From an uncultured Thermoleophilia bacterium (GTDB lineage Bacteria > Actinomycetota > Thermoleophilia > UBA2241), in the NCBI GenBank assembly GCA_903921965.1, contig CAIXSE010000641.1:1-11972 (forward strand): 11,972 bases of DNA, read 5' to 3'. Of this stretch, positions 11 to 11,972 are shown piece after piece. The first letter of the stretch is position 1. The number at the start of each line of letters is the position of its first letter. The notes beneath the pieces are model-generated. The model had not been told where the DNA came from. It did not search any database and saw nothing but the letters and a program-made list of their open reading frames with translations. Both the position numbers and the translations under genes were made by a program.

Positions 11-1312
11 TCAGCCGGCGCTGCCGCAGCAGCGCTTGTACTTCCGGCCGCTGCCGCAGGGGCACGGGTCGTTGCGGCCCGTGGCGCGCGCCTCCTCGGC
101 GAGGAGGGCCATGACCTCCGGCGCCTCGCCGCCCCGGGCGAGGATCTGCGCCATGAGGCGCATCGGCCGCTCCGTGTGCGCGAAGAACGCCTTGAGCCCG
201 GCGCACAGCCAGTTGAGGCCGGGCTCGCCGTCGCTCGTCAGCAGCAGCCGGTTCTTGGGGCACTCGCCGTTGCAGGCGAAGAGGAAGGCGCACTCGCGGC
301 AGAACGCGGGCAGCGTCTCCTGCTTGGCCCGCCCGAAGGCGCGCTGGCGCTCGCCGTTCACGAGGTCGGCCTCGGCGATCTCGAGGATGTTGCCGAGCAG
401 GTAGCGCGGGTCGACGAAGTGGTCGCAGGAGTACAGATCGCCGGTGTGCTCCAGCGCCAGGGCGTCGCCGCAGGTGGGCCGCAGGACGCACACCCCGCCG
501 GCGCCGTGCACGTAGGCGCCCAGCACGGCGTCGAAGAACTGCACGAAGACCTCGCCCACGTCGCGCCGCACCCACTCGTCGAACAGCGCGTTGAGAAAGC
601 GTCCGTAGGCCTCGGGCGCGACGCTGCGGTCGGTGACCGTGCCCGCCTGCGGCGGCCCGGCCCGCCCCGGTCCCCAGGCGCCCTCCCACGACGGCGGCGC
701 AGCGACCTCCACGATCGGTATCAGCTGGATGAAGCGCGCCCCCAGCTCGTCGCGGAAGAAGCGGTACACGTCCAGCGGGTGGCCGGCGTTGGCCGCGTTG
801 ACGGTGCAGAGCACGTTGAACTCCACGCCGTGCTCCTGCAGCCTGCGGGCGGCGGCCACGACGCGGTCGAAGACCGGGTGGCCGCCGGCGTCGTGCCGGT
901 AGGCGTCGTGCAGCTCCCGCGGGCCGTCGAGGCTGAGCCCGACGAGGTAGTCGTTCTCGGCGAGGAAGCGGCACCACTCGTCGTCGAGCAGCACGCCGTT
1001 CGTCTGCAGGGTGCGCTCGACGGCCATGCCGGCGGGCACGAGGCGGACCTCCGCCGCGCGTGCCCGCCGGAAGAAGTCGAGCCCCATCAGGGTCGGCTCG
1101 CCGCCCTGCCAGGCGAGCGTGACCTGCGGGACCTGCTGGGCGCTCGCCGTCTGCGCGACGCAGGCCTCCATGACCTCGTCGCCCATGCGGAAGTCGCTGC
1201 CGGGGTACAGCCCGTCCTTCTCGAGGAAGAAGCAGTAGTCGCAGCGCAGGTTGCAGCGCGCCCCGGTGGGCTTGGCCATGACGTGGAAGGCGGGGACGGG
1301 CGGCGTGGTCAT
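11..1312 (-). CDS. Anaerobic sulfatase-maturase-type radical SAM/SPASM enzyme with C-terminal SEC-C motif
   Basis: Enzymes of this family oxidise a Cys or Ser in a sulfatase active site to formylglycine without oxygen, using S-adenosylmethionine and three [4Fe-4S] clusters in the cytoplasm. From the ATG at 1312 the protein has 433 residues. The radical-SAM motif is Cys20, Cys24 and Cys27 (CNLRCDYC), and a GGEPT SAM-binding motif lies at 70-74. The SPASM cysteines are 275, 281, 296, 338, 341, 347, 351 and 370, with spacing almost identical to that known for the Clostridium perfringens enzyme. Asp297 directly follows Cys296, where that family has its proposed catalytic base. Residues 412-433 form a SEC-C zinc motif (CPCGSG, ending CC). 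An in-frame ATG at 1321 would add three residues; neither start has a strong ribosome site. The gene follows the DUF6326-like gene by about 45 bases on the same strand. No sulfatase lies in the window, so the substrate is unknown; a related peptide-modifying role is possible. Confidence 0.9.
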   Translation of the reverse strand: MTTPPVPAFHVMAKPTGARCNLRCDYCFFLEKDGLYPGSDFRMGDEVMEACVAQTASAQQVPQVTLAWQGGEPTLMGLDFFRRARAAEVRLVPAGMAVERTLQTNGVLLDDEWCRFLAENDYLVGLSLDGPRELHDAYRHDAGGHPVFDRVVAAARRLQEHGVEFNVLCTVNAANAGHPLDVYRFFRDELGARFIQLIPIVEVAAPPSWEGAWGPGRAGPPQAGTVTDRSVAPEAYGRFLNALFDEWVRRDVGEVFVQFFDAVLGAYVHGAGGVCVLRPTCGDALALEHTGDLYSCDHFVDPRYLLGNILEIAEADLVNGERQRAFGRAKQETLPAFCRECAFLFACNGECPKNRLLLTSDGEPGLNWLCAGLKAFFAHTERPMRLMAQILARGGEAPEVMALLAEEARATGRNDPCPCGSGRKYKRCCGSAG

Positions 1313-1356
1313 GACCCGCATGGTACGACAGCGCCGCCCGCCCCTGCCACGCGTGG

Positions 1357-1785
1357 TCAGCCGGTCACCAGGTCGCCGGCCGGCGCCGTCCGGGCCGCGG
1401 TGCGCCACGTCCAGGCCGAGCGCGCGATCAGCACGCAGCCCAGGGTCTCGACGGCGGCGATGAACGCGTAGTGCGGCTCGGCCGGCGAGCCCATGCCCCA
1501 GACGTAGACGACGGTGAATGCCGCGGCCGCGAGGTTCGCCCAGCGCGCCGCCCGCTGCGGGAGCACCAGGGAGAGCAGCACCATGGCGATGGGGACCTCG
1601 GTGAGGACGGCGGCGAGCAGCAGGAAGCCCGGGGTGATGGCGATCTCCCCGGCTCGCCCGGCCAGGATCTGCTGCAGGTTCCCCGCGCTCATGAACGACA
1701 GCACGTCGGCGACGATCATGTTCAGCATCACGAAGACCCACAGCAGCGCCAGGCGGATCCTGTTCTCGGTGTCGGGGGTGGTCAT
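1357..1785 (-). CDS. DUF6326-like small integral membrane protein
   Basis: A 142-residue hydrophobic protein with four likely membrane helices at about 11-32, 53-75, 82-99 and 106-124. The N-terminal part (LWVFVMLNMIVADVLSFM) and the length match what I recall of the DUF6326 family, whose function is unknown. The start is secure: a GGAGAGGAG ribosome site lies just upstream of the ATG at 1785. The gene is divergent from a TetR gene and shares a promoter region with two palindromic operator-like sites, so it is probably the main target of that repressor. The sulfatase-maturase gene follows on the same strand and may be co-transcribed. Membrane targets of divergent TetR repressors are often involved in efflux or stress, but nothing in this sequence shows a transport motif. 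Confidence 0.8.
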   Translation of the reverse strand: MTTPDTENRIRLALLWVFVMLNMIVADVLSFMSAGNLQQILAGRAGEIAITPGFLLLAAVLTEVPIAMVLLSLVLPQRAARWANLAAAAFTVVYVWGMGSPAEPHYAFIAAVETLGCVLIARSAWTWRTAARTAPAGDLVTG

Positions 1786-1805
1786 GTGTGCTCCTCTCCG
1801 GGTGG

Positions 1806-1822
1806 AACTAACGGTGTTAGTT
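1806..1822. promoter_or_regulatory. Palindromic operator-like site 1 of the first TetR
   Basis: The sequence AACTAACGGTGTTAGTT is a perfect inverted repeat with 7-base arms around GGT. It lies 20 bases upstream of the DUF6326-like start and 35 bases upstream of the tetR start. A second copy with the same 6-base arms is at 1843-1857, 36 bases away centre to centre. Position in a divergent promoter next to a TetR gene makes it the likely binding site of that repressor (inference). Confidence 0.8.
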
Positions 1823-1842
1823 TTCTACGTCGCACAGCTTGG

Positions 1843-1857
1843 ACTAACAGTGTTAGT
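1843..1857. promoter_or_regulatory. Palindromic operator-like site 2, touching the tetR start codon
   Basis: ACTAAC-AGT-GTTAGT is a perfect inverted repeat with 6-base arms, differing from site 1 only in the spacer. Its last base is followed immediately by the ATG at 1858, so it occupies the place where a ribosome site would be. Next to it on the minus strand is a perfect TTGACA (1864 down to 1859), a candidate -35 for the DUF6326-like gene. No good -10 is seen at ideal spacing; TAGAAA at 1827-1822 and CAAGCT at 1841-1836 are weak candidates. Confidence 0.8.
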
Positions 1858-2619
1858 ATGTCAAGTGCCGCGCCGGGACCGCCGGCGCGACGGGCCGGAG
1901 GAGGCGCGACGGCGGCACCGACCACAGGCGGAGGCTCTCGGCGGGAGAAGCTCGACAGGGAGCGCGTGCTGCGCGCGGCGATGGCGCTCGCCGACGAGCG
2001 CGGCATGGAGGCCGTCACCATGCGCGAGCTGGGCCGCCGGCTCGGCGTCGAGGCGGCCTCGCTCTACAACCACGTCGCCGGCAAGGACGACCTGCTCGAC
2101 GGCATCGTGGAGCTGGTCGTGGCCCGGATCGACGTGCCCGACGGCGCCACCGGCTGGAAGGAGGCCATGCGGCGCCGGGCCGTCTCGGCGAGGGCCGTCT
2201 TCTCGCGACATCCCTGGGCGGCGGCGCTCATCGACTCGCGGGGACGCAGCGGCGCCGCGAGCCTCTTCTACGCGGACCGGGTCCTCGGGGCGCTGCTGGG
2301 GGCGGGGTTCTCGCCGGCCGACGCCGCCAACGCCTTCCTGGCCCTCGACAGCTACATCTTCGGCTTCGAGCGCCAGCGGGCCAATCTCTCGCTGGACGGC
2401 GACGTGGACACCACCGCGGCGGCGCAGGAGCTCCTGGACGCGGCCCCGCCGGGGGCGTACCCGGCACTGGTGCGCGTCGCCACGGAGTACGCCTCGACGC
2501 CCTACGACGAGGAGGCCGCCTTCGCGTTCGGCCTCGACCTGATCCTCGACGGCCTGGAGAGGCTGCTCGAGTCCGATAGCATCGCCGGCAGGCGCCCGCC
2601 GCCGGCGGGCCGGAGCTGA
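1858..2619 (+). CDS. TetR-family repressor with tetracycline-repressor-like C-terminal domain (first paralogue)
   Basis: A 253-residue repressor. The first 32 residues are a low-complexity Ala/Gly/Pro/Arg tail. The TetR DNA-binding domain follows at about 33-85, with helix-turn-helix TMRELGRRLGVEAASLYNHV at about 54-73 and the family signature KDDLLDGI. The rest is the helical ligand-binding/dimerisation domain of the TetR_C_1 type (SARAVFSRHPWAAALIDSR). The ATG at 1858 is the only upstream start in frame before the helix-turn-helix. It directly abuts an operator palindrome and has no ribosome site, so the mRNA may be leaderless. The stop is 10 bases before the RidA-family gene, so the two are probably co-transcribed. 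A paralogue lies at 4790-5467. The gene is expected to repress itself and the divergent DUF6326-like gene; its ligand is unknown. Confidence 0.92.
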   Translation: MSSAAPGPPARRAGGGATAAPTTGGGSRREKLDRERVLRAAMALADERGMEAVTMRELGRRLGVEAASLYNHVAGKDDLLDGIVELVVARIDVPDGATGWKEAMRRRAVSARAVFSRHPWAAALIDSRGRSGAASLFYADRVLGALLGAGFSPADAANAFLALDSYIFGFERQRANLSLDGDVDTTAAAQELLDAAPPGAYPALVRVATEYASTPYDEEAAFAFGLDLILDGLERLLESDSIAGRRPPPAGRS

Positions 2620-2629
2620 GGAGACAGCG

Positions 2630-3076
2630 GTGAAAGAGGAAGTGAAGTACTACCCCTTCAAGATCGGGGGGGTCGAGCAGACCTGGCCCAACGTGCACCC
2701 GGGGACGCCGAAGTACGCGGCCGGCATCGTGGTGGGCAACCTCGCCTTCCTGTCCGGTATGACGCCGCAGAGCACCGAGGACGGCTCGTGCCTCACCGTC
2801 GGCGTGCACGACCAGGTGTTCGCCTGTCTCGACAAGGTGCGCGCAGTGCTCGAAGAGATGGGCAGCTCCATGGAGAACGTCGTGAAGACGGTGATCCTGC
2901 TCAAGGACCTCGAGTATTACCAGCAGATGCGTGCCGCGGAGCTGGAGTACTACCAGCAGTACGCGCCGCGCCTGGTCAAGGAGCCGCCGGCCAGCACCTA
3001 CGTGCAGCCGGCGATCCTCGCGCGCCCCGAGTTCCTCGTGGAGTTCGACGTGACGGCGGTCATCGAGAGGGCGTGA
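2630..3076 (+). CDS. RidA/YjgF/UK114-family protein lacking the deaminase arginine
   Basis: A 148-residue protein (RidA is usually near 128) starting at a GTG preceded by GAGGAGA. The family fold is clear: GNLAFLSGMTPQ (36-47), then the helix DKVRAVLEEMGSSMENVVKTVILLKDL (from about 68) and the C-terminal strand EFLVEFDVTAVIE. RidA proteins hydrolyse reactive enamine/imine intermediates in the cytoplasm as trimers. That activity needs an arginine (Arg105 in Escherichia coli, in PARSCVE). Here the aligned segment is PASTYVQ, placing Ser122 at that position. This fits the Rid subgroups without the arginine, for which imine hydrolysis is not expected. The hexapeptide LEYYQQ occurs twice, 11 residues apart (94-99, 105-110). 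It follows tetR by 10 bases and precedes the FlbD-like and cupin genes. Confidence 0.88.
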   Translation: MKEEVKYYPFKIGGVEQTWPNVHPGTPKYAAGIVVGNLAFLSGMTPQSTEDGSCLTVGVHDQVFACLDKVRAVLEEMGSSMENVVKTVILLKDLEYYQQMRAAELEYYQQYAPRLVKEPPASTYVQPAILARPEFLVEFDVTAVIERA

Positions 3077-3143
3077 GCGGTCGGCGGCACCGGACGGCGG
3101 GGGACGGGTCCCGGCCACGGTCTTCGGAAGAGGGAGGCGAGTG

Positions 3144-3395
3144 ATGCTCATCGAGCTGCACGACGGCGACGGCACGCCGGTCTACATCAATCCGCGCTAC
3201 GTCATCGCCGTGCGTGAGGAGACGCACCGAGGGCGCCCCGGCGTCGCTTCGGAGGGCGAGTACCGCGACACGCTGGTGATGACGACGAAGCACGAGTTCA
3301 ACGTGCGGGAGACGCCGGACGTGGTGGCGCGTGAGCTCGCCCGCGCGTCCCGGGAGTCGGGCGCCGGCGGCGAGGGGGGCCCGGAGGCCGGCTGA
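3144..3395 (+). CDS. Small FlbD-like protein
   Basis: An 83-residue protein from ATG 3144; GTG 3141 is also in frame, but the GGAGG at 3133-3137 is better spaced for the ATG. The pattern L-x-ELHDGDGTPVYINPRYVIAV, then DTLVMTTKHEFNVRETPDVVARELA, resembles the flagellar FlbD family: a short beta-rich domain with Asn-Pro, a DT-V strand, then V-R-E-T/S and a final helix. There is a charged insertion between the halves (ETHRGRPGVASEGEY) and a Gly/Glu-rich tail. No flagellar gene is in the window, so the flagellar name should not be taken as its function. It lies 67 bases after the RidA-family gene on the same strand and is probably in the same operon. The match is by remembered pattern only. Confidence 0.7.
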   Translation: MLIELHDGDGTPVYINPRYVIAVREETHRGRPGVASEGEYRDTLVMTTKHEFNVRETPDVVARELARASRESGAGGEGGPEAG

Positions 3396-3515
3396 CGCGC
3401 ACCCCGCAGGTTGACCACCGTCAAGCGTCCGCGCGCGCCGGCCGGGGTACCCACAGGTCAGACGCAGACCTCGAGCGCCAGCCGCACGGCGGGCGCTCCG
3501 ACGAACGGAGACCCC

Positions 3516-3839
3516 ATGCAGACGATCACCGCCGACCAGATCGCAGTGGCCGACAACCCGCACGGCGTCGACGTGCGCCACCTCTACCGCAACCCGCACG
3601 TCATGGTCTCGCAGGTCACGCTGGAGCCGGGTGAGGTGGTCAAGCCGCACAAGGCGCCGGTGGACGTCTTCTTCTACGTGGTGGAAGGCGCGCCGAGCAT
3701 CGAGGTCGAGGGCGAGACGGTGACCGTCGAGGCGGGGACGCTGGTGCCCAGCGAGGCCGGGCACCTGCACGCGATCCGCAACGAGGGCATCGGGCGCGTG
3801 CGCTTCCTGGTGGTCAAGACGCCGAACCCGAAGGCCTGA
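3516..3839 (+). CDS. Cupin-fold protein with altered metal ligands
   Basis: A 107-residue single-domain cupin from ATG 3516, with GGAG five bases upstream. The first cupin motif is PGEVVKPHKAPVDVFFYVVEG (39-58) in shape: it keeps His45 but has Ala47 and Val51 where the usual second His and Glu would lie. The second motif, around EAGTLVPSEAGHLHAIRN (72-89), keeps His85, with His83 two residues before it. Only part of the classical 3-His/1-Glu set is therefore present, and the protein could use a changed metal site or act by simple binding. It is the last gene in the tetR-ridA-flbD-like direction, 120 bases after the FlbD-like gene, and a strong hairpin follows it. The longer frame upstream has no ribosome site and low-complexity sequence, so the ATG at 3516 was chosen. 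Confidence 0.88.
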   Translation: MQTITADQIAVADNPHGVDVRHLYRNPHVMVSQVTLEPGEVVKPHKAPVDVFFYVVEGAPSIEVEGETVTVEAGTLVPSEAGHLHAIRNEGIGRVRFLVVKTPNPKA

Positions 3840-3848
3840 CGCGTGGCG

Positions 3849-3881
3849 GGGGGCCGGGGCCGCTCTGCGGCCCCGGCCCCC
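3849..3881. terminator. Bidirectional hairpin between convergent genes
   Basis: An inverted repeat with 15-base arms (3849-3863 and 3867-3881) and a TCT loop, almost entirely G/C. It lies 9 bases after the cupin stop and 22 bases beyond the stop of the convergent DUF4386-like gene. There is no U-tract, as is common in GC-rich actinobacteria. Position and stem strength support a shared terminator. Confidence 0.8.
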
Positions 3882-3903
3882 TGCGCGTACGGCGCCGCGT
3901 GCG

Positions 3904-4665
3904 TCAGGACGCGTCGCGCTGCGCCGCGAGCCGGACGGGGCGTGCGCCGGCCGTGTCCCGCGCCGGGGCCGCGTCGTGTGCGGCGGCGCCGGCGGTCAGC
4001 GGCGCGGTGCGCAGCAGGGCCACGCCGAGCCACGCCAGCCACGCGATCTGCAGCACGCCGAACAGGTAGGCGAGGTCGCGCAGCGGCGGCGCGACGGAGA
4101 GCAGGCCGGCGCCGCCGACGACCACGCCGAGCCAGACCAGCGGCCGGGAGAGCGTCCGCGTGCGCAGGGCGGCGACGCTCACGAGCAGCACCCACAGGCC
4201 GCCGAGGAGCTCGCCGCCGGCCCCGCCGAGCCCCTGCGACACCGGTTCGACGGCCTGCCAGACCGCCGCGGCCTGCGCCGGGTAGGAGCCGCTCAGCCCG
4301 ACGACGGCGTCGACGCCGGCGTTGAAGACGAGCCCGCCGGCGACGAGCATCACGGCCCAGACGAGGCCCACGACCGTGGCGGTCTGGGCCAGCAGCGGTG
4401 CGCCCGCCTTCAGGCGCCGGTGGAGCGCCAGGGCCAGGACGGCCAGCACGACGCCGAACAGCACGTAGGTGACCAGCTCCATGACCCGCATGCCGTCCTG
4501 TTCGGCCACGAGCACGGCGACCTTCTTCGCGGGGGCGGTCACGCTCTGGTAGTCGGAGAAGACGAGGAAGTACGGCATGGCCACCAGGTAGGCGGCGGCC
4601 AGGTACAACGCGGCCCAGCCTCCCGCCTTCTGGTCCCGCGCGATCCCCCCGGTCTGGGTCTTCAT
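3904..4665 (-). CDS. DUF4386-like integral membrane protein
   Basis: A 253-residue protein with six likely membrane helices at about 17-37, 60-81, 91-113, 148-168, 175-193 and 198-218, and a hydrophilic Ala/Arg-rich tail of about 30 residues. The start is supported by AGGAGGGA just upstream of the ATG at 4665. The arrangement (YLAAAYLVAMPYFLV near the N terminus, a long loop, then paired helices ending in WLAWLGVALL) resembles the DUF4386 family, whose function is not established; the family match is moderate. The gene is divergent from the second TetR. Its own promoter, TTGACA-N16-TATGCT, is covered by two TetR-type palindromes, so it should be tightly repressed until that TetR meets its ligand (inference). 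Confidence 0.82.
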   Translation of the reverse strand: MKTQTGGIARDQKAGGWAALYLAAAYLVAMPYFLVFSDYQSVTAPAKKVAVLVAEQDGMRVMELVTYVLFGVVLAVLALALHRRLKAGAPLLAQTATVVGLVWAVMLVAGGLVFNAGVDAVVGLSGSYPAQAAAVWQAVEPVSQGLGGAGGELLGGLWVLLVSVAALRTRTLSRPLVWLGVVVGGAGLLSVAPPLRDLAYLFGVLQIAWLAWLGVALLRTAPLTAGAAAHDAAPARDTAGARPVRLAAQRDAS

Positions 4666-4721
4666 CGTGTCCCTCCTGTCGAGACGTCGTCGCGCTGGTC
4701 GCCGGCGGCGGTGCGCTGTAG

Positions 4722-4736
4722 ACTTACGACGTAAGC
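4722..4736. promoter_or_regulatory. Palindromic operator-like site 1 of the second TetR
   Basis: ACTTACGACGTAAGC contains the inverted repeat CTTACG-A-CGTAAG. It covers most of the -10 element of the divergent DUF4386-like gene. A better-matched copy lies 20 bases away, about two helical turns, so the two sites face the same side of the DNA. Confidence 0.8.
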
Positions 4737-4761
4737 ATAAGACTTACAACGTAAGTGTCAA
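4734..4761 (-). promoter_or_regulatory. Promoter of the DUF4386-like gene
   Basis: On the minus strand, TTGACA (4761-4756) is followed after 16 bases by TATGCT (4739-4734), a good match to a primary sigma factor promoter. Both TetR palindromes overlap it, which fits repression by blocking RNA polymerase. The predicted transcript would start about 60 bases before the ATG at 4665. Confidence 0.7.
4742..4756. promoter_or_regulatory. Palindromic operator-like site 2 of the second TetR
   Basis: ACTTAC-AAC-GTAAGT is a perfect inverted repeat with 6-base arms. It fills the spacer of the minus-strand promoter. Compared with the first TetR operators (ACTAAC-N3-GTTAGT), the only arm change is at plus and minus 4 from the dyad centre. 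Confidence 0.82.
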
Positions 4762-4789
4762 GCATCCGACTCGTGCGAGGATTGCGCCC

Positions 4790-5467
4790 ATGCCGAGACG
4801 CCAGCCGCCTGACCCCGACGCCAGGGCCCCGCTCACCAGGGAGAGCGTGCTGCGCGCCGCCGTCGCGCTCGCCGACGAGCGCGGGCTCGGCGCGCTCACC
4901 ATGCGCGAGCTCGGGCAGCGGCTGGGGGTCGAGGCGATGTCGCTGTACAACCACGTCGCCAACAAGGACGACCTCCTCGACGGCATGGTCGACCTCGTGG
5001 TCGCCGAGATCGAGCTGCCCGCGACCGTGGCCGACTGGCGGGAGGCCATGCGCCGACGGGCTCTCTCCGCGCGGGCCGTCTTCGCGCGCCACCCGTGGGC
5101 CGCGGCCCTCGTCGACTCGCGGGAGAGCAGCGGCCCGGCGCGCCTGCGCTACCTCGAGTGGGTCCTCGGGACCCTGCGGCTGGCCGGGTTCCCCATCGCC
5201 ACGGCGCTCCGGGTGTTCTCCCTGCTCGACAGCTACATCTACGGGTTCGGCCGGCAGCAGCTCAACATGGCGGCCGGGGGGGAGGCCGAGCCCGAGGCCA
5301 TGGCGGAGGCCTTCATGCAGGCGCTGCCCGCCGACGAGTACCCGTACCTTCGCGAGGCGGTCGTGTCCGCGATGGCCGGCGGGTACGACGACGCCGCCGA
5401 CTTCGCCTTCGGCCTCGAGCTCATCCTCGACGGGCTGCAGGCGCTGCTGGACCGCACGGCCACGTAG
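4790..5467 (+). CDS. TetR-family repressor with tetracycline-repressor-like C-terminal domain (second paralogue)
   Basis: A 225-residue repressor clearly paralogous to that at 1858-2619; they share long stretches such as RHPWAAAL, the LDSYI-GF region and the FAFGL-LILDGL end. The helix-turn-helix is at about 37-56 (TMRELGQRLGVEAMSLYNHV), followed by KDDLLDGM. Met50 stands where the first paralogue has Ala67; this aligns with Pro39 of Tn10 TetR. The ATG at 4790 has GCGAGG about nine bases upstream; longer readings have no plausible start. Two palindromes lie 34-68 bases upstream, between this gene and the divergent DUF4386-like gene, so autorepression and repression of the neighbour are expected. 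The next gene downstream, of unknown family, is 86 bases away. Confidence 0.92.
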   Translation: MPRRQPPDPDARAPLTRESVLRAAVALADERGLGALTMRELGQRLGVEAMSLYNHVANKDDLLDGMVDLVVAEIELPATVADWREAMRRRALSARAVFARHPWAAALVDSRESSGPARLRYLEWVLGTLRLAGFPIATALRVFSLLDSYIYGFGRQQLNMAAGGEAEPEAMAEAFMQALPADEYPYLREAVVSAMAGGYDDAADFAFGLELILDGLQALLDRTAT

Positions 5468-6206: not shown

Positions 6207-6311
6207 TCAGAAGAACACCAGGCCCAGGGTGATCCCCACCAGGACCCAGGCGAGGCCGAGCGAGGCGACGATGATGCCGGCCAGGCCGTAGCCGCTGCGC
6301 GTGCGGCGCCG
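6207..6311 (-). repeat. Direct repeat copy A (3' end of the 78-residue gene)
   Basis: This 105-base segment encodes the last 34 codons plus stop of the small membrane protein. It matches 10108-10212 at about 93 of 105 bases by hand count, without indels and in the same orientation. The match ends abruptly on both sides. Confidence 0.85.
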
Positions 6312-6443
6312 GCCGGCGATGCTCACCACGAGCCCGGCTGCCCAGAGGGCGAGGGCGACCGGCGATACCGCGGGAAAGGCCGCCACCACCCAGCCCGCGG
6401 CGGCCGCGCCCAGTCCGTACTTGCCCCAGTCACGCTGCGTCAC
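6207..6443 (-). CDS. Small two-to-three-helix membrane protein, 78 residues
   Basis: From the GTG at 6443 (GGAG five bases upstream), a 78-residue protein begins MTQRDWGKYGLG. It has hydrophobic segments at about 11-44 (probably two short helices) and 52-76, separated by a basic linker AGRRRTRSG. The layout resembles DUF4190-like small membrane proteins that are often encoded singly in actinobacteria, but function is unknown. The longer frame upstream of 6443 is Arg/Gly-rich with no ribosome site. The 3' end (6207-6311) is repeated at 10108-10212 with no indel. The gene lies 114 bases downstream of the hydrolase gene on the same strand. Confidence 0.75.
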   Translation of the reverse strand: MTQRDWGKYGLGAAAAGWVVAAFPAVSPVALALWAAGLVVSIAGRRRTRSGYGLAGIIVASLGLAWVLVGITLGLVFF

Positions 6444-6557
6444 TCGTGCTCCGGCCCGTGGTGTCGCTTGCGCCCGCCCGCACCCGCCTCGCTGCCGAAG
6501 GATACCGCGGGCGCCGGGGGGCACGGGCCGGCTGCGCGCGGCGGCGGGCGAGACGCT

Positions 6558-10107: not shown

Positions 10108-10212
10108 TCAGAAGAAGGCCAGCCCCAGGGTGATCCCGACCGCGACCCAGGCGAGGCCGAGTGAGGCGAGGACGACCCCGGCCAGGCCGTAGCCGCTCCG
10201 CGTGCGGCGCCG
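10108..10212 (-). pseudogene. Truncated copy of the 78-residue membrane protein gene (direct repeat copy B)
   Basis: These 105 bases encode RRRTRSGYGLAG and the final membrane helix, ending LGLAFF and a stop. They are homologous to the end of the gene at 6207-6443, with 29 of 34 residues and about 93 of 105 bases identical by hand count. Upstream of codon 34 the similarity stops at once and the sequence becomes the leader of the dehydrogenase gene. There is no start or first helix, so this is a remnant. The changes are codon-like substitutions without indels, which suggests both copies were coding for some time before truncation. Confidence 0.8.
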
Positions 10213-10262
10213 CGACTGCGCGACCACGACGACGGCCTCGGAGCGGAGACGGGTCGTCTTGA

Positions 10263-10280
10263 TACACTGGCCGTCCAGTG
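10263..10280. promoter_or_regulatory. Palindrome CACTGG-N4-CCAGTG upstream of the dehydrogenase, with possible -10
   Basis: CACTGG (10265-10270) and CCAGTG (10275-10280) form a perfect inverted repeat, 75 bases upstream of the GTG at 10355. TACACT (10263-10268) could be a -10 inside it; no convincing -35 is seen. The shape is that of a TetR-type operator, but no regulator gene adjoins it. Confidence 0.5.
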
Positions 10281-10354
10281 ACGGCATCGCCTGCCGCGTT
10301 CCGCCCGCTGGTCGTGCCGCATCCCGCTCGAAGGTCAGAGGCAGGTGGTCGCGG

Positions 10355-11275
10355 GTGCAAGCGGTGGTCTGCACCAGATACGGTCCCCCGGAGGTGCTCG
10401 AGCTCGTCGACCTTGCGGTCCCGGCGCCGCGGCGGGGCGAGGTGCGCGTGCGGGTCCGCGCCACGGCCGTCACCTCGAGCGACACCTACGTCCGCGGGCT
10501 GAGGCTCGGCCCGCTCTACCGGCTCATGGCTCGGCTCGCCCTGGGGTGGAGCGCACCGAGGCAGCCCGTCCTCGGCATGGTGCTCTCCGGCGAGATCGAT
10601 GCCGTCGGCGAGGGCGTCTCGGCGTTCGCGCCGGGCGACCGGGTCTTCGGCTTCGACCGGCACAGGTTCGGCGCGTACGCGCAGTACGTGTGCTGGCCCG
10701 CCGGCGGCCTGCTGGCGACGCGTCCGCCCGGCATGACCGACGAGGATGCCGCCGCCGTCCCCTACGGCGGCCTGCTCGCGCTGCACTTCCTGCGCAAGGC
10801 GCGGGTCGCACGGGGACACGATGTCCTCATCTACGGAGCGTCGGGCGCCGTCGGCACCTCCGCCGTCCAGCTCGCCCGGCACTTCGGCGCCCGGGTCACC
10901 GGCGTCTGCGGGCCGGCCAACGTCGAGCTGGTGCGTTCCCTCGGGGCGGTCCAGGTCGTCGACTACACGCGCGAGGACTTCACCGCGGGACCGGGGCGGT
11001 ACGACGTCGTGCTCGACGCGGTCGGCAAGGCGAAGAGCGCGGCGGCCCTCGAACGCTGCGCCCGGGTGCTGTCGCCCGGCGGGCGCTGCATCTCGGTCGA
11101 CGACGGGACCCCGAAGCTGCTGCGCGGGGATCTGGCCCTCCTCGGCGAGCTGGCGGGATCGGGTGAGCTGCAACCCGTGGTCGACCGGCGCTATCCGCTC
11201 GCCGGGATCGTCGAGGCGCACAGGTATGTCGAGCAGGGGCACAAGCGTGGCAACGTGGTCGTCACGGTGCCGTGA
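10355..11275 (+). CDS. NAD(P)-dependent MDR-family dehydrogenase (quinone oxidoreductase-like)
   Basis: A 306-residue medium-chain dehydrogenase/reductase. It starts at GTG 10355 with the family-typical MQAVVCTRYGPPEVLEL, and AGGTGG lies upstream. The GroES-like domain covers about 1-115 (GEVRVRVRATAVTSSD; VLGMVLSGEIDAVGEGVSAFAPGDRVFGF). The Rossmann domain has the nucleotide motif YGASGAVGTSAVQLA (160-174) and ends in HRYVEQGHKRGNVVVTV. The cysteine and histidine ligands of zinc alcohol dehydrogenases are absent, as expected for the zinc-independent branch that reduces quinones or enones with NAD(P)H in the cytoplasm. The length is a little short of the usual 320, but all elements are present. 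A longer upstream reading frame runs across the palindrome and is not credible. Confidence 0.92.
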   Translation: MQAVVCTRYGPPEVLELVDLAVPAPRRGEVRVRVRATAVTSSDTYVRGLRLGPLYRLMARLALGWSAPRQPVLGMVLSGEIDAVGEGVSAFAPGDRVFGFDRHRFGAYAQYVCWPAGGLLATRPPGMTDEDAAAVPYGGLLALHFLRKARVARGHDVLIYGASGAVGTSAVQLARHFGARVTGVCGPANVELVRSLGAVQVVDYTREDFTAGPGRYDVVLDAVGKAKSAAALERCARVLSPGGRCISVDDGTPKLLRGDLALLGELAGSGELQPVVDRRYPLAGIVEAHRYVEQGHKRGNVVVTVP

Positions 11276-11934: not shown

Positions 11935-11972
11935 GCCCTCGTAGCTCAGTGGATAGAGCACAGGTTTCCTAA
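11935..11972 (+). tRNA. tRNA-Arg(CCT), 5' part, cut by the window end
   Basis: The acceptor 5' strand GCCCTCG (11935-11941) is followed by TA. The D arm is GCTC, loop AGTGGATA, GAGC (11944-11959). The 5' half of the anticodon stem is CAGGT (11961-11965) and the loop TTCCTAA (11966-11972). Positions 34-36 are CCT, which reads the arginine codon AGG. The sequence ends just after the anticodon loop, so the 3' strand, T arm and CCA cannot be seen. Confidence 0.93.

What the first reader, a model, noticed from the sequence alone, without database searches (positions are those of the whole stretch)
1806..4756. Two paralogous TetR repressors whose operators and recognition helices appear to co-vary at one position
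Seen: the first TetR has two sites ACTAAC-N3-GTTAGT (1807-1821, 1843-1857), the second has two sites ACTTAC-N3-GTAAGT (4722-4736, imperfect at one end, and 4742-4756). The arms differ only at plus/minus 4 from the dyad. The recognition helices are GVEAASLYNHV and GVEAMSLYNHV, differing only at one residue (Ala67 against Met50). Established: in Tn10 TetR the aligned residue is Pro39, and changes at Glu37/Pro39 switch recognition to tetO variants at position 4. The right half TG-T-T-AG here even aligns with TG-A-T-AG of tetO. Inference: this duplication split into two insulated regulons by one residue and one base pair per half site.
Basis: partly seen in the sequence, partly recalled or inferred. 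Interest (0 to 1): 0.75.

Follow-up and report, generated by a model that had tools for sequence, protein, structure and literature searches.

The report
Paired repressors, one-residue operator switch
Two related gene-silencing proteins in one bacterium have DNA-reading helices that differ by one amino acid and binding sites that differ mainly by one base pair per half, and in their relatives the same amino acid usually tracks the same base.

Summary
The two TetR_C_1 repressors differ in the recognition helix only at TetR residue 39 (Ala67 / Met50); their operators differ at ±4. Among 369 distinct relatives' HTHs, 167 had an operator when sites were called blind to ±4: Met39 goes with T at -4 (158 of 170 sites T:T), Ala, Pro and Gly39 with A (18 of 23, 11 of 11, 3 of 3 A:A); Thr39 follows no rule. 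Residue 39 has the highest mutual information with position 4 of 58 HTH columns. The switch recurs in other residue-37/38 backgrounds and in 6 of 6 resolved independent pairs on a weakly supported tree. Residues 37/38, 40 and 43 track positions 5, 6 and 7. Tet classes A, B, D and G, not used in fitting, agree at positions 4 and 6. Two corrections: TetR1 and TetR2 are not sister proteins, so this is no local duplication; and insulation is inferred, not shown. The residue-39/position-4 link is known from engineered Tn10 TetR, and a published statistical TetR-operator model could not be read. The kind is known; the explicit natural rule and this paired locus may be new.

The parts
1858..2619 (+). 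TetR1, 253 aa TetR_N + TetR_C_1 repressor, Ala39 type (Ala67)
   Evidence: the ATG follows directly on the second operator
2044..2076 (+). recognition helix GVEAASLYNHV of TetR1; the Ala67 codon is 2056-2058
   Evidence: translation, HMM columns
1807..1821 (.). operator ACTAACGGTGTTAGT
1843..1857 (.). operator ACTAACAGTGTTAGT
1357..1785 (-). divergent DUF6326 gene, presumed target of TetR1
   Evidence: Pfam PF19851 E 4.9e-19; DUF6326 also divergent to the Ala39 tetR in L001, L005, L006
4790..5467 (+). TetR2, 225 aa TetR_N + TetR_C_1 repressor, Met39 type (Met50)
4925..4957 (+). recognition helix GVEAMSLYNHV of TetR2; the Met50 codon is 4937-4939
   Evidence: translation, HMM columns
4722..4736 (.). 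operator ACTTACGACGTAAGC (last base breaks the dyad)
4742..4756 (.). operator ACTTACAACGTAAGT
4734..4761 (-). sigma-70-like promoter TTGACA-16-TATGCT for the divergent DUF4386 gene; operator 4742-4756 fills most of the spacer and 4722-4736 overlaps the -10
   Evidence: the only promoter-like site found in 1700-4800; shuffles mean 0.0, sd 0.2
3904..4665 (-). divergent DUF4386 gene, presumed target of TetR2
   Evidence: Pfam PF14329 E 2.4e-06, 28 bits against a cut-off of 27.6, so marginal

Best explanation
Each repressor is a TetR_C_1 switch that acts on its own divergent promoter. A dimer sits on two 15-bp operators and shuts off its own gene and a divergent gene (DUF6326 for TetR1, DUF4386 for TetR2). 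The recognition helix reads each half-site in register: residue 39 with ±4, residues 37/38 with ±5, residue 40 (and 37) with ±6, residue 43 with ±7, with the near-invariant Arg28 facing G at ±2. Residue 39 is a toggle: Met goes with T at -4 (half-site ..TAC), Ala, Pro or Gly with A at -4 (half-site ..AAC). TetR1 and TetR2 share 37, 38, 40 and 43, so their half-site arms are the same except at ±4. Shown: the sites, the residues, their co-variation in homologues and its recurrence. Inferred: that residue 39 causes the preference by direct contact (by analogy with Pro39 of Tn10 TetR; Arg28/G2 likewise recalled), that repression occurs, and that the two operators are not cross-bound.
For: Blind operator calls on 369 distinct HTHs, 167 with a site (C-2/G+2, A-3/T+3, symmetric at 5, 6, 7): Met39 158 of 170 sites T:T; Ala39 18 of 23, Pro39 11 of 11, Gly39 3 of 3 A:A; no Met39 site A:A, no Ala39 site T:T. 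By protein: Met39 117 T, 0 A, 8 mixed; Ala/Pro/Gly39 22 A, 0 T, 4 mixed. Mutual information with position 4: residue 39 0.589, next residue 43 0.258. Leave-one-out on 151 Met/Ala/Pro/Gly proteins: residue 39 predicts 143, baseline 119, best of the 11 other columns tried 131. Glu37-Ala38 subfamily (7 Ala39, 153 Met39): column 39 is the only perfectly separating one of 58; sites blind to ±4 are A:A in 11 of 11 and T:T in 157 of 162. Same 37-38, different 39: the commonest half-sites switch from T to A in EA, VP, QA, GP, SA and, less cleanly, GA. Tree pairs, Ala/Pro/Gly against Met with resolved base: 6 same way, 0 opposite. Tet classes A, B, D, G, not used in fitting: all Pro39, all A at -4. Both types side by side in L002 with matching sites.
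Against: Operators are inferred from dyads; published sites were compared only for Tet classes, ActR and SCO7222. Without the A-3/T+3 condition the calls are noisier: Met39 162 T:T among at least 230 listed sites, Ala39 19 of 30 A:A, Pro39 11 of 17, Gly39 3 of 4. Thr39 has mixed ±4 (30 sites); one Asn39 protein has T. Ala39 in L175 has mixed half-sites; so has the Met39 neighbour in L005 (GCTGAC / GTAAGC). 55 of 153 Met39 and 1 of 7 Ala39 proteins of the subfamily have no site of that pattern, and 202 of 369 proteins overall have no blind site. Ala39 arose once in this subfamily on the tree, so the window pair is one event. Starred branches give only 2 independent pairs; 6 of 6 on the best tree is a two-sided p of about 0.03. 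Several background contrasts rest on one protein (VP-Ala, VP-Gly, QA-Met, QA-Ala, GA-Met, SA-Met, SA-Pro).
Confidence: 0.85

Rival explanations
1. Shared descent only: the Ala39 clade happens to have a different operator, and residue 39 is a passenger marker of the clade.
For: Ala39 is a single clade of 7 in the subfamily; the family tree is weakly supported, with 2 starred pairs.
Against: The same residue and base change together in other residue-37/38 backgrounds, on 6 of 6 resolved pairs of the best tree, and Tet classes A, B, D, G fit.
Confidence: 0.07
2. Another HTH residue (32, 47, 17 or 43) or the N-terminal arm sets the ±4 preference.
For: Residues 43 and 17 carry some information on position 4.
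Against: Residue 39 alone separates the 7 Ala39 from the 153 Met39 proteins; 29 and 22 of the 153 Met39 proteins share an Ala39-clade residue at 32 and 47; L014 has Arg32 and L064 Gly47, both with CTTAC sites. The N-terminal arm was not examined.
Confidence: 0.06
3. The ±4 difference is real but not insulating: each repressor binds both operator types in the cell and the loci cross-regulate. (This can hold together with the best explanation.)
For: No binding data; the arms differ at one base pair per half-site; the two promoters lie about 3 kb apart.
Against: Among Met39 and Ala/Pro/Gly39 promoters none had both a T:T and an A:A site; an engineered V36F E37A P39K / tetO-4C5G pair is described as specific relative to tetO (PMC6515661 passage), though with more changes on both sides.
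Confidence: 0.3

Closest known systems
Tn10-type TetR (classes A, B, D, G) with tetO
   Same: Divergent layout, two dyads with C-2/G+2 next to a TTGACA-like box, A at -4 with Pro39; residue 40 Thr with C at -6 (B, D) and Ala with T at -6 (A, G)
   Different: tetO has T at -3 (Gln38) where these have A (Ala38); TetR2 has Met39 and T at -4; the divergent genes are DUF6326 and DUF4386, not a tetracycline pump
Engineered TetR V36F E37A P39K with tetO-4C5G
   Same: Changing residue 39 together with 36 and 37 changes recognition at positions 4 and 5, giving a pair specific relative to tetO (PMC6515661, passage seen; Krueger 2007 seen only as a reference)
   Different: Laboratory product in Tn10 TetR with C at position 4; here the natural change is Ala/Met with A/T
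SimR (2y2z; DNA complex 3zql) and ActR (2opt)
   Same: Closest solved relatives by sequence (E 8.2e-28 and 2.1e-21); SimR has Met39, ActR Ala39
   Different: Distant; antibiotic-export repressors. ActR's published putative sites hold CCACCGTT (AACGGTGG on the other strand; PMC3511530 passage), loosely consistent with A at -4 but irregular. SimR's operator sequence was not seen
Statistical TetR-operator model (Long et al. 2020, NAR)
   Same: Predicts TetR-family sites by statistical learning; benchmarked in the Snowprint paper (passage and reference)
   Different: Not held, so I cannot say whether it contains the residue-39 rule
Residue-base correlation studies in LacI, GntR, IclR and MerR
   Same: Same kind of analysis (PMC2978694, PMC4494728, PMC8222616, PMC5045206; titles and abstract starts only)
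   Different: Other families

Membership tests
TetR family (PF00440 TetR_N) | TetR_N HTH above the Pfam cut-off | tested here: met
   46.9 and 40.6 bits against 24
TetR_C_1 (PF02909) | C-terminal domain above the Pfam cut-off | tested here: met
   73 and 83.2 bits against 21
Tet repressor-type operator recognition | 15-bp dyad with C-2/G+2, Arg28, two copies in a divergent promoter | tested here: met
   Sites, MR at 27-28 in both proteins, divergent genes; Arg28 in 356 of 369 relatives
Tet repressor-type operator recognition | Residue 39 contacts base 4 | tested here: inconclusive
   Co-variation found; no complex structure of these proteins
Tetracycline-resistance repressor | Divergent to a tetracycline efflux pump | tested here: not met
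   Divergent genes are DUF6326 and DUF4386; the ligand could not be tested
Insulated paralogue pair | Neither repressor binds the other's operator | not testable with these tools
   needs binding assays

The most novel reading that the evidence does not exclude
TetR_C_1 repressors obey a compact natural recognition code in four registers: 39 with ±4 (Met-T; Ala/Pro/Gly-A; Thr relaxed), 37/38 with ±5, 40 with ±6 (Ser/Thr-C, Ala-T, Arg-G), 43 with ±7 (Asn-A, Lys/Arg-G). Evolution moves single registers to make orthogonal repressor-operator pairs, and operators can be written down from five residues. The window is a one-register example, and the neighbouring of an Ala39 and a Met39 repressor in 3 of 7 Ala39 loci (window, L002, L005) suggests selection for orthogonality.
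Probability: 0.55. Interest if true: 0.68.

Novelty: new member of a known kind. Interest (0 to 1): 0.57.

Why it matters
TetR-type repressors are very common in bacteria and a main source of parts for biosensors, yet most have no known operator (general knowledge). A residue-to-base rule that holds across a Pfam family would let operators be predicted and orthogonal pairs be chosen from sequence, and shows how natural paralogues could avoid cross-talk by one residue and one base pair per half-site. It is a natural counterpart to what was earlier made in the laboratory with Tn10 TetR.

Tried and rejected

Local tandem duplication: not supported by the tree. Chance dyads: rejected (shuffled upstream DNA gives 7.6 TetRs with a site per replicate against 167 observed). 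Positions 32 or 47 as determinant: rejected for the subfamily. Central bases as determinant: they vary among Met39 sites.

Ala39 in the [VI]EAA.LYNH form is rare: 1 of 400 genomes of the phylum of G003 (the seed itself); in the phylum of G002, 37 of 296 genomes matched the open form and the only Ala39 match was the seed. So more independent Ala39 origins in this subfamily could not be gathered.

The starred-branch pair test lacked power (2 pairs); the 9 pairs are on the unsupported best tree. Two GPAT rows (L274, L275, another TetR type) were dropped from that pair count only. The 399 sequences scanned hold some TetRs of other types from the flanks. No structure prediction was run.

Papers: 9 searches. 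One search found none; two searches listed PMC6515661. No listed title or abstract start points to a residue-39 rule in natural TetRs, but bodies were not read except passages of PMC6515661, PMC11686294 (no mention of P39), PMC10858194, PMC5812520 and PMC3511530. So I do not claim that the rule is unpublished.

Two Pfam queries were probably given out of frame by me (window 11-1313 minus; L003), so their 'no family' is not a finding; the DUF6326-like protein of L003 was only read by eye.
Full report
What is in the window. Two TetR_C_1 repressor genes, TetR1 (1858-2619) and TetR2 (4790-5467), each lie divergent to a gene of unknown function, DUF6326 and (marginally) DUF4386. Between each divergent pair are two 15-bp dyads. 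The one consensus promoter found in 1700-4800 is TTGACA-16-TATGCT on the minus strand before the DUF4386 gene; operator 4742-4756 fills most of its spacer and 4722-4736 overlaps the -10, so a bound repressor would block polymerase. No such promoter was found for TetR1, TetR2 or the DUF6326 gene. TetR1's start codon follows its second operator without a gap. In the subfamily, 26 of 100 proteins with an operator have an exact TTGACA within 14 bases of an operator end. The Tet class A, B, D and G promoters show the same two dyads with TGTCAA just beyond.

Homologues, close set. Ala39 members L001, L002, L003, L005 and L006 have CTAAC-N3-GTTAG sites. Met39 members from records titled Actinomycetota, Chloroflexi, Myxococcus, Spirochaetes, a cyanobacterium, Planctomycetota and others mostly have CTTAC-N3-GTAAG; several show no site. 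L002 carries both repressors side by side, each with its own operator class. L005 carries both too, but its Met39 neighbour has an imperfect site, GCTGACGGTGTAAGC. Of the other Ala39 loci, L001, L003 and L006 lie on short contigs or near a contig end, and L004 shows no Glu37-Ala38 Met39 neighbour in its 6.7 kb. L004 has Ala39 and Ala40, with dyads GTTAACAGTGTTAAT and ATTAACAGTGTTCAT: A at -4 is kept, C at -6 is replaced by T.

Homologues, broad set. Protein searches in 40, 119, 81, 81 and 79 unnamed, partly overlapping genomes (with N-terminal pieces) and 140 fetched stretches, with the loci, gave 398 loci plus the window and 369 distinct HTH domains after removing repeats. Residue 39: Met 268, Ala 38, Thr 27, Pro 18, Gly 9, Ser 3, Asn 2, Arg 2, Gln 1, gap 1.

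Blind test. Sites were called with C-2/G+2, A-3/T+3 and dyad symmetry at ±5, ±6 and ±7, ignoring ±4. 167 of 369 proteins had a site; shuffled upstream DNA gave 7.6 per replicate. Reading both half-sites in the same sense, Met39 gave T:T in 158 of 170 sites, Ala39 A:A in 18 of 23, Pro39 in 11 of 11, Gly39 in 3 of 3. Thr39 gave no rule (30 sites: CT 8, AC 7, AT 5, TA 3, CA 2, five others 1 each). One Asn39 protein gave T:T. Dropping the A-3/T+3 condition adds noise: Met39 162 T:T among at least 230 listed, Ala39 19 of 30 A:A, Pro39 11 of 17, Gly39 3 of 4. By protein: Met 117 T, 0 A, 8 mixed; Ala/Pro/Gly 22 A, 0 T, 4 mixed; Fisher p 4.6e-26 on the unmixed proteins, not corrected for kinship. For Met, Ala, Pro and Gly the rule names 393 of 414 half-sites correctly.

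Which residue. Mutual information between each of 58 HTH columns and each operator position, called blind to that position: position 4 with residue 39 (0.589; next 43 at 0.258), position 5 with 37 and 38 (0.591, 0.492), position 6 with 37 and 40 (0.508, 0.434), position 7 with 43 (0.552). Position 3, nearly always A under these calls, showed no clear partner (all 0.112 or less). By leave-one-out among residues 37-40 and 43, the best single predictors are 39 for position 4 (150 of 167, baseline 122), 38 for 5 (143 of 172, baseline 95), 40 for 6 (148 of 175, baseline 112) and 43 for 7 (137 of 205, baseline 88). Position 6 is C with Ser40 (281 of 338 half-sites), T with Ala40 (95 of 114), G with Arg40 (12 of 16); position 7 is G with Lys43 (56 of 58) and mostly A with Asn43 (232 of 330). 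In the Glu37-Ala38 subfamily, column 39 is the only one of 58 that separates 7 Ala39 from 153 Met39 proteins. 55 of the 153 and 1 of the 7 lack a site of the .CTNAC-N3-GTNAG. pattern, so the rule is untested for most of them.

Independence. In the subfamily Ala39 arose once, inside Met39 (support 89, not starred). Across the family the best tree needs 10 changes between Met and non-Met, of which starred branches force 2. On the best tree 9 independent pairs exist: 5 or 6 go the same way, 0 the opposite way, 1 ties (Asn39), the rest are unresolved; with Ala/Pro/Gly against Met and resolved bases only, 6 of 6 go the same way. Holding residues 37-38 fixed, the commonest half-sites switch in each of six backgrounds: EA (73 Met, 6 Ala proteins), VP (15 Met GTGTAC; 1 Ala GTGAAC; 1 Gly CTGAAC; 1 Thr mixed), QA (1 Met, 1 Ala, 2 Pro), GP (7 Met, 7 Ala, 1 Gly; some stray half-sites in both), SA (1 Met, 1 Pro) and GA (1 Met; 2 Ala with 6 A and 2 T half-sites; 11 Thr mixed).

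Check on Tet repressors. From annotated plasmids, TetR(A) QQPA, TetR(B) EQPT, TetR(D) EQPT and TetR(G) QQPA have half-sites TTTATC, TCTATC, CCTATC and TTTATC/CTTATC. The blind caller, here without the A-3 condition, found one site each for A and B and none for D and G, whose dyads are not symmetric at ±7; these were found by a pattern (D) and read from the sequence. A stands at -4 with Pro39 in 4 of 4; T at -6 with Ala40 in A and G, C at -6 with Thr40 in B and D. T at -3 with Gln38 lies outside the code fitted here. Two other plasmid hits (Nonomuraea, Acinetobacter) had no site to test. Published footprints: SCO7222 TGGAACGNCGTTCCA and ActR CCACCGTT-containing sites (PMC3511530 passage). ActR is Ala39. 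SCO7222 is, from memory, PDB 2hxo, which is Gly39. Both fit A at -4, ActR only loosely because its sites are irregular.

Regulon size. Exact ACTWAC-N3-GTWAGT in six draft genomes with an Ala39 relative gave 7 places in 5 genomes, all at the Ala39 tetR promoter; the reversed control gave 0. The Met39 site of L002 is inexact and so not counted there. These look like local switches.

What is known. That residues 37 and 39 of Tn10 TetR govern position 4 is established by engineering (recalled, and a passage on V36F E37A P39K / tetO-4C5G in PMC6515661). A statistical model of TetR-family operators exists (Long et al. 2020, seen only through Snowprint). So this is a natural, well supported case of a known contact; whether the explicit rule is already in print I cannot say. 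The ligands and the functions of both loci remain unknown.

Noticed in passing
L147, L158, L170, L172, L188, L290, L367, L372 and other Thr39 loci: Thr39 (GATS, AATA) repressors have operators whose two half-sites often differ at ±4 (e.g. GCGAACAATGTACGC), and C is allowed; a relaxed or asymmetric reading that the Met/Ala rule does not explain.
   Followed up: partly
L004, L208 and Ala40 proteins in general: Residue 40 tracks operator position 6 (Ser/Thr-C, Ala-T, Arg-G), also between Tet classes A/G and B/D.
   Followed up: yes
window 6207-6524 (-) and 10108-10485 (-): Two ORFs share a C-terminal stretch SGYGLAG..ASLGLAWV.VGITLGL.FF, so a small, probably membrane-bound protein seems to be duplicated within the window.
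   Followed up: no
window 11-1741 (-): The ORF reads like a radical-SAM enzyme of the sulfatase-maturing type with a C-terminal DPCPCGSGRKYKRCC (SEC-C-like) motif; labels from memory, and my Pfam query was out of frame.
   Followed up: no
window about 11935-11972 (+): The window end looks like the first half of a tRNA gene (from memory); ARAGORN finds none, perhaps because it is cut off.
   Followed up: no
window 1357-1785, L001, L005, L006: DUF6326 proteins lie divergent to the Ala39 repressor in 4 of the 7 Ala39 loci by Pfam (L003 by eye as well); L004 has DUF4386 and L002 a zinc-type dehydrogenase instead.
   Followed up: partly
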